A stretch of 12,912 bases of DNA from an uncultured Thermoanaerobacteraceae bacterium (GTDB taxonomy: Bacteria > Bacillota > DSM-12270 > Thermacetogeniales > Thermacetogeniaceae): assembly GCA_937914965.1 (NCBI GenBank), contig CALGIY010000187.1, positions 1-12,912 of the forward strand, read 5' to 3'. The notes beneath the pieces are model-generated. The model had not been told where the DNA came from, searched no databases, and worked only from the letters and a program-made list of their open reading frames with translations. Both the position numbers and the translations under genes were made by a program. The stretch's first letter is position 1. Each line of letters starts with the position of its first letter. This document shows positions 678 to 3,019 of the stretch, piece after piece.

Positions 678-706
678 GCAGGATGTGAATAACTTTTGTC
701 GAATAT
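678..706 (+). promoter_or_regulatory. Candidate sigma-H promoter for folC, overlapping a Spo0A-box-like octamer
   Basis: GCAGGATGT (678-686) matches 8 of 9 positions of the Bacillus sigma-H -35 consensus RnAGGAwWW. GTCGAATAT (698-706) matches the -10 consensus RnnGAATww at every position. The 11-base spacer equals, as I recall it, that of the classic spoVG promoter. A start about 7 bases beyond the GAAT core, near 711-713, would place the structured leader at the very 5' end of the transcript. The same bases contain TTGTCGAA (696-703), identical to the core of the Spo0A box, so the site could instead or additionally be a Spo0A target. Consensus match only; no expression data. Confidence 0.5.
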
Positions 707-728: not shown

Positions 729-851
729 CTTGATCAAGAAGGAAGGTGAGCGGCCTGCGTTTCCGGCGGCCCGCCCGGTTGTAGTGCCTGGCACCAAACT
801 TATTGAGGCTGCCCGCTCCCCTTGAGTGCGGAGAATCTCCGGGAAACCAGG
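729..851 (+). ncRNA. Structured leader RNA of folC (copy A of a two-copy element)
   Basis: From 5' to 3' the element holds: a perfect palindrome at 729-738 (CTT/AAG stem, GATC loop); the strand AAGGAAGGTG (739-748); five bases (749-753); then a four-way junction. Closing stem P1 pairs 754-757 with 848-851 and 759-764 with 842-847, with C758 bulged. P2 pairs 765-771 with 807-813 and has a further apical hairpin around GTGCCTGGCAC (784-794). P3 pairs 814-818 with 824-828. P4 pairs 829-833 with 837-841. No junction base is left unpaired. The 3' strand of P1 includes the AGG that serves as folC ribosome-binding site, 7 bases before the GTG at 859. Copy B before rex (2238-2371) has the same order, the same conserved strands and compensatory changes. 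Suggested role: translational control of folC. The ligand or partner is unknown. No known riboswitch class was recognised. Confidence 0.8.
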
Positions 852-858
852 TAGACAA

Positions 859-2199
859 GTGAATTATCAGGATGCACTTGATTTTCTGACCGATTTAACC
901 AAATTTGGTATCAATCTCGGACTTGGGCGGATTGAGTATTTGTTGTCCCTGCTGGGGAACCCCGAGCGTTCACTGCAGATTATTCATGTGGGAGGTACTA
1001 ATGGCAAGGGTTCTGTGGCTATGATGACATCAAGGATCCTGGAGGAGGCCGGGTACCGGGTAGGACTCTTCATCTCTCCTCACCTCCATTCCTATACAGA
1101 GCGCTACCTGATCAACCACCAGCCCATTACAGAAGAGCGTTTTGCCGCTCTGATGAGCCAGTTAAGGCCTCTGCTGAAGAAAATGGTAGCTGATGGCCAT
1201 GAACATCCAACAGAATTTGAGGTGTGTACAGCCCTGGGTCTTCGCTATTTCTTTGAAGAGAAGGTGGATTTCCTGGTGCTGGAGGTCGGGATGGGTGGTG
1301 TCATTGACTCCACAAATGTGGTACCGGATCCCCTGGTTTCGGTGATTACCAATGTTACTTACGACCATATGGATTATCTGGGGAATACGATCGCTGAAAT
1401 TGCTGCAGTCAAGGCTGGAATTATTAAAAAAGGTGGGCATGTGGTTACCGCTGCCTGGTATCCAGAAGCTCTTAAGGTGATCGAGGAACACTGCCGCGAA
1501 GAGGGGGCATCACTTCAGCAGGTAGGGAAAGATATTAAATGGGAGCTAAAGGAAGCTGCACCTGCGTGGACCTCTTTTGATCTAACCAGTTCCTGGGGTG
1601 TTTACAGAGATCTGCGTATCCCTCTGGCTGGGCAGTACCAGGCTGTAAATGCTGCAGCCGCCCTGGGTGTGATCGAGATCCTGCGTCACATTCACCACTT
1701 CCCTATTACTGATGACCAGATCAGGACAGGTTTTGCCCGGAGTTACTGGCCAGCACGCCTAGAACTGCTGCATGAAAATCCCCAAGTAATTGTTGATGTA
1801 TCCCACAACTACGATGGTTCTCGTACCCTTAGTGCAGCAATTAGAGATGTTTATCAATATGAAAAGCTTATTTTAGTCCTGGGTATGCTGGGGGATAAAG
1901 AGCGGGAGAAGGTAGTAGCAGAGCTTGCTCCTCTTGCTGCTGCTGTAATTATCACCAAACCCTTAAGCCCCCGGGCAGGTGATTGGGAAAAACTGGCCGA
2001 TGAGGCCCGCAAATACATAGACCGTGTCTGTATTATCGAGGAGATTCAGGATGCTGTGAGTGCTGCCCTTGAGGAGGCCAATCCTGATGACCTGGTCTGC
2101 ATCACAGGTTCTTTTTACATGGTGGCCGATGCCAGGGAATATCTGTTGAAGAGATTCCAAACTGATCAGAAAATAAACTCACGGGTGATGCATTCATAA
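859..2199 (+). CDS. folC: FolC, bifunctional folylpolyglutamate synthase / dihydrofolate synthase
   Basis: This cytoplasmic Mur-ligase-family enzyme adds glutamate to tetrahydrofolates (and to dihydropteroate in bifunctional forms) using ATP. I start it at GTG 859, giving 446 residues opening NYQDALDFLTDLTKFGINLG, the usual FolC N-terminus. The in-frame GTG at 826 would add 11 unrelated residues, has no ribosome-binding site and lies inside the leader RNA. Visible motifs are the P-loop GGTNGKGS (about 45-52), LEVGMGGVIDSTN (about 146-158; many homologs have GRLDATN here), DHMDYLG followed by IAAVKAGIIK with the lysine expected to be carbamylated, and a C-terminal ligase domain with VDVSHNYDGS. 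Its start signal is AGG at 849-851, which is also part of the leader's closing stem, so translation is probably structure-controlled. It is not next to valS as in many Firmicutes. Transcription probably comes from 628-656 and/or 678-706. Confidence 0.95.
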   Translation: MNYQDALDFLTDLTKFGINLGLGRIEYLLSLLGNPERSLQIIHVGGTNGKGSVAMMTSRILEEAGYRVGLFISPHLHSYTERYLINHQPITEERFAALMSQLRPLLKKMVADGHEHPTEFEVCTALGLRYFFEEKVDFLVLEVGMGGVIDSTNVVPDPLVSVITNVTYDHMDYLGNTIAEIAAVKAGIIKKGGHVVTAAWYPEALKVIEEHCREEGASLQQVGKDIKWELKEAAPAWTSFDLTSSWGVYRDLRIPLAGQYQAVNAAAALGVIEILRHIHHFPITDDQIRTGFARSYWPARLELLHENPQVIVDVSHNYDGSRTLSAAIRDVYQYEKLILVLGMLGDKEREKVVAELAPLAAAVIITKPLSPRAGDWEKLADEARKYIDRVCIIEEIQDAVSAALEEANPDDLVCITGSFYMVADAREYLLKRFQTDQKINSRVMHS

Positions 2200-2210
2200 A
2201 AAGGCTTTTC

Positions 2211-2226
2211 ACCGTATTCGTGCGGT
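2211..2226 (+). other. Small hairpin with TTCG tetraloop after folC
   Basis: ACCGTA (2211-2216) pairs with TGCGGT (2221-2226), with one T-G wobble, across a TTCG tetraloop. It starts 11 bases after the folC stop. It is followed by alternating AT rather than a T-run, so it is not a convincing intrinsic terminator. It may cap or stabilise the folC mRNA end, or simply precede the rex leader. Confidence 0.4.
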
Positions 2227-2237
2227 AATATATATGA

Positions 2238-2371
2238 CCAAGCTTGGAAGGGAGGTGCAAAACCTGTGTTTCCAGCAGTTCTTTCGGGATAGAGTGTAAA
2301 AATCCCGGAACTGCTCGTTCTCAATGGAGTAGAACGCCAGGCTGTGTGTTTATGCAGTCTGGGAGACCAGG
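2238..2371 (+). ncRNA. Structured leader RNA of rex (copy B of a two-copy element)
   Basis: Same order of parts as copy A before folC. A perfect palindrome lies at 2238-2247 (CCA/TGG stem, AGCT loop), then AAGGGAGGTG (2248-2257), five bases (2258-2262) and a four-way junction. P1 pairs 2263-2266 with 2368-2371 and 2268-2273 with 2362-2367, with T2267 bulged. P2 pairs 2274-2281 with 2308-2315 and continues as 2285-2290 with 2302-2307 after a TTT bulge. P3 pairs 2316-2321 with 2331-2336. P4 pairs 2338-2344 with 2355-2361. Only C2337 is unpaired at the junction. The 3' strand of P1 overlaps the rex ribosome-binding site AGGGA (2369-2373), and the TTG start follows P1 by 6 bases. P2 contains three fully compensatory changes relative to copy A. 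It probably controls rex translation within the folC-rex transcript. No known class was recognised. Confidence 0.82.
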
Positions 2372-2377
2372 GATATT

Positions 2378-3019
2378 TTGAAGTCATCGAAAATACCGGA
2401 AGCAACTATTATGCGTCTTGCTGTTTACTCGCGGTTTTTAGAAAACGCTAAACAGCGAGGTGTTGTTACTATCTCATCTGGTTCTATTGCAGAAGGGACA
2501 GGCGTAACCCCAGCACAGGTGCGCAAGGATCTGGCGTATTTTGGGGAATTTGGTACACGGGGTGTCGGTTACAATGTTAGAGAACTCAACGGCCATGTTT
2601 TGCGCATTCTCGGATTGAATCATAAGTGGCCGACGGTGCTGGTTGGAGCGGGAAAACTTGGGTCTGCCCTTGCTCTTTACGAGGGTTTTCTTGCCAGGGG
2701 TTTCCATATTGTTGGGATTTTTGATGTGGATACCGACCCTGTTGGTAAGCGTTTCGGGAGTATTGAGGTACTGCCCGTTAGTCAGCTTGAAGAGGTAATT
2801 AGTAAATACAATGTTCAAATCGGCATTATCACTGTGCCTGTTGCTGCTGCTCAGGATGTAGGTGAGCGTTTGGCTGGCGCAGGTATTAAGGCTATCCTCA
2901 ATTTCTCTCCTAAAGTTATCAACTTGCCTGCAGATATCATTGTGCGTCATGTAGACTTTTCCCTGCACCTGGAGGTGCTCACCTTCAACCTTGCTAGGAA
3001 GGTTGAAAGTAAAAAGTAG
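2378..3019 (+). CDS. rex: Redox-sensing transcriptional repressor Rex
   Basis: Rex dimers bind operators of fermentation and anaerobic respiration genes and let go when NADH/NAD+ rises. The 213 residues fit the family length (about 205-215). An N-terminal winged helix (about 1-80) includes the recognition segment QVRKDLAYFGEFGTRGVGY (47-65), a Rex hallmark. A Rossmann domain follows, with GAGKLG (90-95) as the GxGxxG dinucleotide loop and FDVD (115-118) supplying the acidic residue after strand two. The C-terminal helix, around LHLEVLTFNLARKV, is the domain-swapping part. The start is TTG 2378, giving MKSSKIPEATIMRL, which aligns with the usual Rex N-terminus. Its ribosome-binding site AGGGA lies in the closing stem of the structured leader just upstream, so production is likely under RNA control as well as possible autoregulation. 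No clear Rex operator was found near it. Confidence 0.97.
   Translation: MKSSKIPEATIMRLAVYSRFLENAKQRGVVTISSGSIAEGTGVTPAQVRKDLAYFGEFGTRGVGYNVRELNGHVLRILGLNHKWPTVLVGAGKLGSALALYEGFLARGFHIVGIFDVDTDPVGKRFGSIEVLPVSQLEEVISKYNVQIGIITVPVAAAQDVGERLAGAGIKAILNFSPKVINLPADIIVRHVDFSLHLEVLTFNLARKVESKK

What the first reader, a model, noticed from the sequence alone, without database searches (positions are those of the whole stretch)
729..2371. Two copies of one unrecognised structured RNA sit before folC and before rex
Copy A (729-851) and copy B (2238-2371) share, in the same order and with identical lengths over the first 36 bases, a 10-nt palindrome, AAGGRAGGTG, N5, and CCTG-Y-GTTTCC. They also share the distal strand GGARACCAGG. 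Between these strands both fold into three arms that abut with at most one unpaired base, forming a four-way junction. Sequence differences are mostly compensatory: three G-C/A-T or C-G/T-A swaps in P2, one in P3, two in the 5' palindrome, plus several wobble-neutral changes. Two independent copies obeying the same fold is strong evidence of selection on RNA structure. I recognise no known riboswitch, T-box or ribozyme in it.
Basis: partly seen in the sequence, partly recalled or inferred. Interest (0 to 1): 0.93.

Follow-up and report, generated by a model that had tools for sequence, protein, structure and literature searches.

The report
Transposon ends spliced into ribosome-binding sites
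The two look-alike RNA structures in front of the genes folC and rex are likely leftover right ends of a transposon that inserts into ribosome-binding sites, and they are predicted to fold so that a strong ribosome-binding sequence more than 100 bases upstream is brought back beside the start codon.

Summary
In detail: two copies (739-851, 2248-2371) share sequence and a four-arm fold with compensatory changes, and Rfam has no match. They are probably not an unknown riboswitch. The same RNA forms the right end of an IS607-type transposon (serine recombinase plus TnpB) in a relative, inserted between AGGAGG and the start of tatA. A sister group of such elements sits directly after GGAGG (23 of 27 left ends found), and its right end is followed 4-13 nt later by a start codon and open frame in 29 of 38 cases (13% at control sites). 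Right ends hold their own Shine-Dalgarno (SD) sequence, then a closing helix P1, then the host gene. At folC and rex the transposon genes are gone; relatives show both empty sites (plain SD) and occupied sites. Across 30 leaders the SD lies 52-255 nt from the start codon, yet with P1 paired only 5-13 unpaired nt remain in 29 of 30. None of the 9 genomes with a rex copy has a TnpB hit, so guide-RNA use is unlikely. Best reading: a split ribosome-binding site made by a transposon end, as in phage T4 gene 25, kept by the host. The origin is well supported; the translational mechanism is inferred and untested.

The parts
739..851 (+). Copy A: solo right-end remnant of an IS607-type TnpB element, between promoter region and start codon of folC
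   Evidence: CM match 739-861; orthologues and empty sites
739..748 (+). Copy A: SD1 (AAGGAAGGTG), predicted ribosome-binding sequence
   Evidence: anti-SD duplex -12.8 kcal/mol against -7.6 for the sequence just before the start codon
754..763 (+). Copy A: P1 5' strand (CCTG, bulged C, GTTTC)
765..813 (+). Copy A: P2 arm (765-771 with 807-813)
   Evidence: covariation
814..828 (+). Copy A: P3 arm (814-818 with 824-828)
   Evidence: covariation
829..841 (+). Copy A: P4 arm (829-833 with 837-841)
   Evidence: covariation
843..851 (+). Copy A: P1 3' strand GAAACCAGG; ends in the GG read as the IS607 exchange dinucleotide, host sequence follows
   Evidence: right-end junctions of full elements
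859..861 (+). folC start codon GTG, 7 nt after the element
   Evidence: same distance in G016, G018, G011, G006
2248..2371 (+). Copy B: solo right-end remnant of the same kind of element, before rex
   Evidence: CM match 2248-2380 (copy B was used to build the model); orthologues and empty sites
2248..2257 (+). Copy B: SD1 (AAGGGAGGTG)
   Evidence: anti-SD duplex -15.0 kcal/mol against -7.9
2263..2272 (+). Copy B: P1 5' strand (CCTG, bulged T, GTTTC)
2274..2315 (+). Copy B: P2 arm (2274-2281 with 2308-2315)
   Evidence: covariation
2316..2336 (+). Copy B: P3 arm (2316-2321 with 2331-2336)
   Evidence: covariation
2337..2362 (+). Copy B: P4 arm (2337-2344 with 2355-2362)
   Evidence: covariation
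2363..2371 (+). Copy B: P1 3' strand GAGACCAGG, element/host junction at its end
2378..2380 (+). rex start codon TTG, 6 nt after the element
   Evidence: ORF 2378-3019; start at the same place in relatives

Best explanation
The two RNAs are likely TnpB-less right ends of an IS607-type transposon that inserted into the Shine-Dalgarno sequences of folC and rex, and they are predicted to work as split ribosome-binding sites: the ribosome would bind the strong SD1 at the 5' edge of the element, while the closing helix P1 loops out everything between it and the start codon. Shown by sequence: the RNA is homologous to the right end of an element with tnpA remains and tnpB; elements of this kind sit directly after GGAGG and, in most cases counted, directly before start codons; orthologous folC and rex loci exist with a plain SD or with the element; SD1 and P1 can be read in every copy while the inner arms often cannot. 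Inferred: that the tnpA-tnpB part was lost by recombination between the host SD and the SD-like repeat inside the right end; that SD1 is the one used; that P1 is kept because it sets the distance to the start codon.
For: (1) Origin. In L040 (Syntrophomonadaceae) the same RNA overlaps the end of tnpB and ends 8 nt before tatA; the left end of that element reads ATAGGAGG, so the empty site would be AGGAGG plus 8 nt plus ATG. tnpB remnants precede the RNA in G034 (before a nucleotidyltransferase gene) and L047 (before trxA). The L040 protein matches NCBIfam guided_TnpB (E 1.3e-20, 74.1 bits, under the 100-bit cut-off) and TIGR01766 (49.3 bits, over its cut-off of 32). (2) Insertion into SDs, from a sister group of elements with a larger TnpB: 23 of 27 left ends found have GGAGG directly in front; 29 of 38 right ends have a start codon with at least 60 open codons 4-13 nt downstream, against 646 of 4853 positions after GG in the flanks. 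The purA site is occupied in G004 and a plain AGGAGG in G010, G005, G002, G014, G009 and G003. (3) Occupied against empty: rex 9 of 16 genomes with the element, 7 with a plain SD; folC 9 of 15 with it, 6 without. (4) SD1 binds the anti-SD better than the pre-start sequence in 30 of 30 leaders (medians -14.6 and -7.05); SD1-to-start distance 52-255 nt, but 5-13 unpaired nt with P1 paired in 29 of 30. (5) P1 is kept while its letters change: native pairing beats at least 95% of shuffles in 18 of 22 leaders; 96.9% of cells paired in 13 leaders, 2 pairs with both-sided changes; outside that alignment g8 folC has GCCTGC/GCGGGC and g8 rex GTTTCCCG/CGGGAAGC. (6) TnpB model NF040570: hits at E<=1e-5 in 0 of the 9 genomes with a rex copy and in 10 of the other 11. 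(7) Full elements of the sister group carry the same SD-P1 layout in 34 of 34 right ends scored. (8) Precedent: T4 genes 25 and 38 (PMC3014915, passages) and E. coli thrS (PMC3936740, passages).
Against: No expression or probing data. A weak SD-like AGG remains 5-10 nt before many start codons (CCAGG), so SD1 need not be used. A hairpin P0 (SD1 with the P1 5' strand) competes with P1: about -10 kcal/mol in G016, G018 and G004 folC, tatA, trxA and the nucleotidyltransferase copy, -7.0 in g8 rex, -3.9 in A and -5.2 in B. Median predicted unpaired fraction of SD1 is only 0.48, P1 is predicted at 0.5 or more in 25 of 30 leaders, and the start codon of copy B itself is predicted unpaired at only 0.10. 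Copy A is not more stable than shuffles, and its P1 misses the 95% mark (5.7% of shuffles as good), as do G019 and G011 folC and nhaC. In the swap test some foreign strands pair as well as native ones, within a P1 class and for G004 folC generally. The number of P1 pairs with both-sided changes is reached by 31 of 500 shuffles. With P1 paired the linker (mostly 8-12 nt after GGTG, plus the helix) is longer than the spacing of the plain SDs. Elements and orthologues share ancestry, so counts are not independent; 3 of the 30 leaders still have tnpB or a piece of it upstream. In G004, which has a folC and an nhaC copy, TnpB is abundant (13 hits).
Confidence: 0.74

Rival explanations
1. A cis-regulatory switch: P0 (SD1 with P1 5' strand) and P1 (P1 5' strand with the CCAGG before the start codon) are alternative pairings, so CCTG acts as an anti-SD that hides one or the other ribosome-binding sequence, perhaps under control of a ligand, temperature or protein.
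For: P0 is predicted in all 30 leaders, strongly in several, and g8 rex keeps one of -7.0 kcal/mol in new letters; P1 covers the CCAGG next to the start codon; the inner arms covary.
Against: P0 follows largely from SD1 and CCAGG sharing AGG. In g8 folC P1 has changed letters and stays paired while P0 is only -1.8 to -2.6 kcal/mol, and in fabK of G396 P0 is a 9-base loop of -5.5. No loop or pocket-like core is shared by the orthologues to my eye, and 10 of 18 folC/rex copies are not found by the four-arm model. The genes (folC, rex, nhaC, rsgA, dnaA, fabK, tatA, trxA by my reading) share no pathway.
Confidence: 0.15
2. The solo RNAs still serve as guide RNAs (reRNAs) for a TnpB or a TldR-like protein acting in trans, with the gene start as guide.
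For: They derive from the reRNA end of a TnpB element; the four-arm scaffold covaries; IS607 reRNAs lie downstream of tnpB and run into the flank (PMC11061315 and PMC10711439, passages).
Against: 0 of 9 genomes with a rex copy have a hit to NF040570 at E<=1e-5. 10 of 18 folC/rex copies no longer match the four-arm model while SD1 and P1 can be read in all. The genomes are incomplete and a very distant TnpB could be missed.
Confidence: 0.06
3. Inert relics: decayed transposon ends whose structure is inherited by chance, with translation driven by the weak SD (CCAGG) next to the start codon.
For: Interiors differ widely between orthologues; a short AGG remains near many starts; ribosomes can use standby sites (PMC3936740, abstract and passages).
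Against: SD1 stays strong in 30 of 30 leaders and P1 stays paired through letter changes; in g8 folC there is no AGG left just before the ATG.
Confidence: 0.08

Closest known systems
IS607-family transposons with TnpB (Chen 2018, PMC6188088; Ren 2024, PMC11061315)
   Same: Serine recombinase plus tnpB in the full elements; exchange at GG; structured RNA downstream of tnpB at the right end; published TAM AGGAG or GAGGG, i.e. SD-like, agrees with the GGAGG left junctions here
   Different: Window copies have lost tnpA and tnpB; no Rfam match, so not shown to carry the RAGATH-18 motif; 'start codon' and 'ribosome' do not occur in the main text of PMC11061315 and 'Shine' not in PMC6188088
Split ribosome-binding sites: phage T4 genes 25 and 38, E. 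coli thrS
   Same: An RNA structure between SD and start codon shortens the effective distance or is accommodated by the ribosome
   Different: Here the intervening structure is a transposon end, 52-255 nt between SD and start rather than 22-27 nt in T4, and recurs before many unrelated genes
IStrons (group I intron plus IS; group B with IS607-type transposase and GG-ending targets; PMC4227781)
   Same: IS607-type element with a way to keep an insertion harmless; a related intron has a GGAGG homing site
   Different: IStrons are removed by self-splicing; no group I intron match was found here, and the proposed rescue is by looping out during initiation
RAGATH-18 RNA
   Same: Structured RNA of IS607 TnpB elements
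   Different: No Rfam match in the window or in the eight loci tested; I did not check separately that the library holds this model

Membership tests
Right end / reRNA of an IS607-type TnpB element | Lies downstream of tnpB in complete elements | tested here: met
   L040/L154: decayed tnpA, tnpB, RNA; tnpB remnants in L047 and G034
Right end / reRNA of an IS607-type TnpB element | GG at both host junctions, no target duplication | tested here: met
   L040 element: left AGGAGG, right CCAGG; sister group 23 of 27 left ends GGAGG. In the window copies only the right junction can be read
Right end / reRNA of an IS607-type TnpB element | tnpA and tnpB present | tested here: not met
   Window copies have neither; no NF040570 hit in G000. 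Hence 'remnant', not 'element'
Right end / reRNA of an IS607-type TnpB element | RNA binds TnpB and guides cleavage | not testable with these tools
   needs biochemistry
RAGATH-18 RNA | Match to the Rfam covariance model | tested here: inconclusive
   No match at the window copies at E<=10 or at the elements in L083, L040, L047, L131, L147, L080, L132, L129 at E<=1; that Rfam 15 holds a RAGATH-18 model was not checked
Split ribosome-binding site | Strong SD too far from the start codon, with a structure in between that shortens the distance | tested here: met
   by prediction; P1 at 0.5 or more in 25 of 30 leaders
Split ribosome-binding site | Mutating the structure lowers translation | not testable with these tools
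   needs reporters
Riboswitch | Match to a known class or a conserved ligand-binding core | tested here: not met
   No Rfam riboswitch match; no shared core in the orthologues by eye. A new class without a recognisable core is not excluded
IStron | Group I intron in the element | tested here: not met
   No group I intron match

The most novel reading that the evidence does not exclude
A lineage of IS607 transposons carries a portable ribosome landing pad: it targets Shine-Dalgarno sequences, splits them, and its right end supplies a replacement SD plus a loop-out helix so that the host gene stays translated. This is a translation-level counterpart of IStron self-splicing. Hosts repeatedly keep the bare end as the leader of core genes such as rex, folC, rsgA and dnaA, and P0/P1 may toggle the same RNA between guide-RNA scaffold and ribosome-binding site.
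Probability: 0.5. Interest if true: 0.85.

Novelty: new variant of a known kind. Interest (0 to 1): 0.7.

Why it matters
It would explain how an element that inserts into ribosome-binding sites avoids silencing the genes it lands in, and give a sense to the SD-like target motifs of IS607 TnpBs. It gives a set of natural split ribosome-binding sites with loops from about 50 to 255 nt in which rules for long-range SD use can be tested. It also warns that leader RNAs of core genes can look like riboswitch candidates while being transposon ends.

Tried and rejected
Rfam search of the window at E<=10 gave six matches, none at the two copies and none plausible for a bacterium: a plant microRNA, long noncoding RNAs and small nucleolar RNAs, all below gathering scores. 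DNA search of G000 with copy A found three further short matches (15-28 nt, E 0.06-0.75) that I take for chance and did not read; the CM found only A and B there. Viral contigs: no match to the 25-base pattern. The same pattern in genome contigs gave 15 stretches: L044 is the Syntrophaceticus contig seen as G018; L037 is identical to L007 (G016) and L033 to L014 over the stretch compared; L034, L040 and L047 have the 3' strand, L034 only in a weak form; the other nine lack it and are read as chance. The two-mismatch hits of genus g3 (L012-L014) lie in a coding sequence and lack the 3' strand: chance.

Coding reading considered: the AAG-GNA-GGT frame (end of tnpB in L040/L047) varies at second codon positions and keeps third ones, so the conservation is not protein-driven. 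A small upstream ORF from CTG after SD1 was considered: it ends at different places in A and B and is absent in g8 rex; rejected by eye, not scored. Group I intron: no Rfam match. A perfect-P1 pattern (GGAGGTG..CCTGGTTT..AAACCAGG) matched in 2 of 398 genomes, with no control match in the rows: dnaA in G121 and a branched-chain amino-acid binding protein in G094; too strict to be a census, and these two are not among the 30 leaders. The weak CM hits L137-L145 (E 0.0004-0.041) were not used: most look like chance, L138 may be a minimal copy (see Noticed in passing). L150 was used only as one row of A8.

Rows dropped: in A7 only copies with N5 and the one-base bulge, 13 of the 30 leaders, because the others differ in length or repeat a row. 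In A8 only nine copies in which four arms could be read; of 50 loci, 39 distinct right ends were found and 38 scored (L075 too short); 4 loci repeat an element, L054, L072 and L078 end too early, L082 gave no tnpB frame, and L074, L092, L093 were missed by my motif but, looked at, also have GAACCAGG followed by ATG after 7-11 nt (open frame not scored); 9 of 36 elements gave no left end by the motif used; of the four non-GGAGG picks L057 and L067 look like wrong picks (L067 reads GGAGG), L062 reads GGACG and L102 is one base off. purA: of 10 loci two (L109, L110) could not be read by my scripts, and G011 has a different, element-free leader.
Full report
WHAT IS THERE. Both minimum-energy folds contain the closing helix (P1) and the three arms P2-P4; copy B is clearly more stable than shuffles (z -3.60), copy A is not (z -0.77). 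The 10-nt palindromes exist but are not conserved in orthologues, so I leave them out. The window belongs to an assembly of 411 contigs (G000). That G004 is Thermacetogenium phaeum is my guess and comes from no call.

MORE COPIES. The joint pattern gave 5 matches in 3 of 149 genomes and none for its backwards control. With two mismatches 7 of 20 family genomes matched, three of them by a coding sequence that I take for chance; the backwards control matched once. A covariance model built from B, the tatA copy and the trxA copy found A (33 bits) and the nhaC copy (40 bits), neither of which was in the model. In 398 phylum genomes 18 had a match at E<=0.05, several of them weak and probably chance. 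The better ones lie before rsgA (G075, G270), fabK (G396), dnaA (G278) and other genes. Gene names are my reading of the translations.

WHERE IT COMES FROM. In L040 the RNA overlaps the 3' end of a tnpB gene and ends 8 nt before tatA. The protein matches the guided_TnpB model at 74.1 bits (cut-off 100) and TIGR01766 at 49.3 bits (cut-off 32). A longer stretch of that genome shows a broken serine-recombinase-like tnpA upstream and, at the left end, host sequence ...CTATAGGAGG followed by element sequence; the right junction is ...GAAACCAGG then TAACAACTATG. So the element lies between AGGAGG and a spacer of 8 nt before tatA's ATG. Remnants of the same tnpB precede the RNA in G034 (before a nucleotidyltransferase gene) and L047 (before trxA). 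A sister group with a TnpB of about 560 aa, first seen in G004, G003 and G005, has the same right-end plan; matches to it at E<=1e-20 occur in 30 of 398 phylum genomes. Left ends: of 36 elements tried, 27 left ends were found, 23 with GGAGG directly in front. Right ends: 29 of 38 are followed 4-13 nt later by a start codon with at least 60 open codons, against 646 of 4853 control positions after GG and 20 of 93 after GGAGG in the same flanks. Some of the nine misses are short genes or prfB, whose first frame is short (recalled). The purA gene shows the event: occupied in G004, a plain AGGAGG before the start in G010, G005, G002, G014, G009 and G003. This agrees with the published GG exchange site of IS607 (PMC6188088, passages) and with the TAM AGGAG (18 of 22 strains) or GAGGG (4 of 22) of IS607 TnpBs (PMC11061315, abstract and passages).

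FOLC AND REX. Of the 20 family genomes 16 have a rex match; 9 of these have an element between SD and start and 7 a plain SD. Among 15 genomes with a readable folC start, 9 have it and 6 do not (G017 is cut off). The nine rex carriers show no hit to the TnpB model NF040570 at E<=1e-5, while 10 of the other 11 family genomes do; genomes are incomplete, so absence is not proven. Of these 18 copies 8 match the four-arm model at E<=5 and 10 do not, but a strong SD at the 5' edge (SD1) and a closing helix can be read in all 18. The helix changes its letters on both sides: CCTG-n-GTTTC/GAAACCAGG in the window and in G016 and G018, CCTGGTTTCC/GGAAACCAGG in G006 rex, GTTTCCCG/CGGGAAGC in g8 rex, CCGG/CCGG in G011 rex, GCCTGC/GCGGGC in g8 folC, and AACTG/CAGTT in fabK of G396.

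NUMBERS FOR THE LOOP-OUT. Over the 30 leaders assembled (27 without and 3 with tnpB or a piece of it upstream, many of them orthologues of one another), SD1 binds the anti-SD better than the sequence before the start codon in 30 of 30 (medians -14.6 and -7.05 kcal/mol). SD1-to-start distances run from 52 to 255 nt, whereas the unpaired linker with P1 formed is 5-13 nt in 29 of 30; the exception, rex of G011, looks like an over-extended duplex. P1 beats at least 95% of shuffled 3' strands in 18 of the 22 leaders then in hand; copy A (5.7% of shuffles as good), G019 and G011 folC and nhaC miss that mark. In the 13 leaders of equal length 96.9% of P1 cells pair and two pairs change on both sides; 1 of 500 shuffles reaches the covariation score, 31 of 500 the number of such pairs. 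The stems P2-P4 of nine four-arm copies, cut out by hand, pair in 99.1% of cells with 9 of 13 pairs changed on both sides and 0 of 500 shuffles reaching the covariation score. In the full elements of the sister group 34 of 34 scored right ends have SD1 at -9 kcal/mol or better in front of P1, always stronger than the pre-start sequence (35 tried, one without CCTGGT). So the transposon itself holds an SD-like sequence and a helix placed so that they could serve the gene whose SD it has split; that they do so is inferred.

RESULTS AGAINST. A hairpin P0 between SD1 and the 5' strand of P1 competes with P1; SD1 is predicted unpaired at a median of only 0.48, P1 falls below 0.5 in 5 of 30 leaders, and the start codon of copy B is predicted mostly paired. 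The covariation of P2-P4 is best explained by the guide-RNA scaffold of the parent element, not by translation. CCAGG before the start is itself a weak SD in many copies. SD1 in the full elements may also have a role in the TnpB guide RNA; I did not test that. All mechanism is from sequence.

PRECEDENT AND NOVELTY. T4 genes 25 and 38 use a structure between SD and AUG to shorten the distance from 27 to 11 and from 22 to 5 nt (PMC3014915, passages), and the E. coli thrS leader is a split site in which a long hairpin is accommodated (PMC3936740, passages). IStrons make IS insertions harmless by splicing, some with IS607-type transposases and GG-ending targets (PMC4227781, start of abstract and passages). 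In the listings of searches I saw no title or abstract start that puts IS607 right ends and SD use together. I opened six papers and read only the passages named; PMC13418256 (TldR), which holds IS607 and Shine-Dalgarno once each, was not opened; subscription papers are not held. I therefore call it a new variant of a known kind: the parts are known, the combination appears not to be described.

Noticed in passing
window 680-704: AGGATGT-N14-GAAT with TTGTCGAAT just before the folC copy looks like a sigma-H-type promoter with a Spo0A-box-like motif (both consensus motifs recalled); it is also seen before folC in G016, G018, G019, G007, G011 and G006.
   Followed up: partly
L129 and L130, about 1500-1640 on the minus strand: rsgA behind a solo copy in G075 and G270 seems to start with CTG, as no ATG, GTG or TTG lies at the expected place.
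   Followed up: no
L133 (G278) and L153 (G121): dnaA itself is preceded by such a transposon end in two genomes of one genus, with a TTG start.
   Followed up: partly
L138 (G072), about 1500-1540: AAGGAGGTG-CAAAA-CCTGG-GTTG-CCAGG-TAAAAT-ATG: an SD, a 5-bp hairpin and a start codon, as if a solo end had shrunk to P1 alone; E only 0.0013 in the model, may be chance.
   Followed up: no
L068 / L086 (G005): One full element lies inside what reads as the frame of an S1-domain-like gene instead of before a start codon.
   Followed up: no
L058 / L085 (G003): A full IS607-type element sits directly before prfB, the release factor gene with a programmed frameshift (recalled).
   Followed up: no
L040 5865-5969, minus strand: A SAM riboswitch (98 bits) lies between tatA and a metH-like gene.
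   Followed up: no
all 30 leaders: SD1 and the 5' strand of P1 can form a small hairpin P0 that excludes P1; it may be a switch between guide-RNA and mRNA forms.
   Followed up: partly
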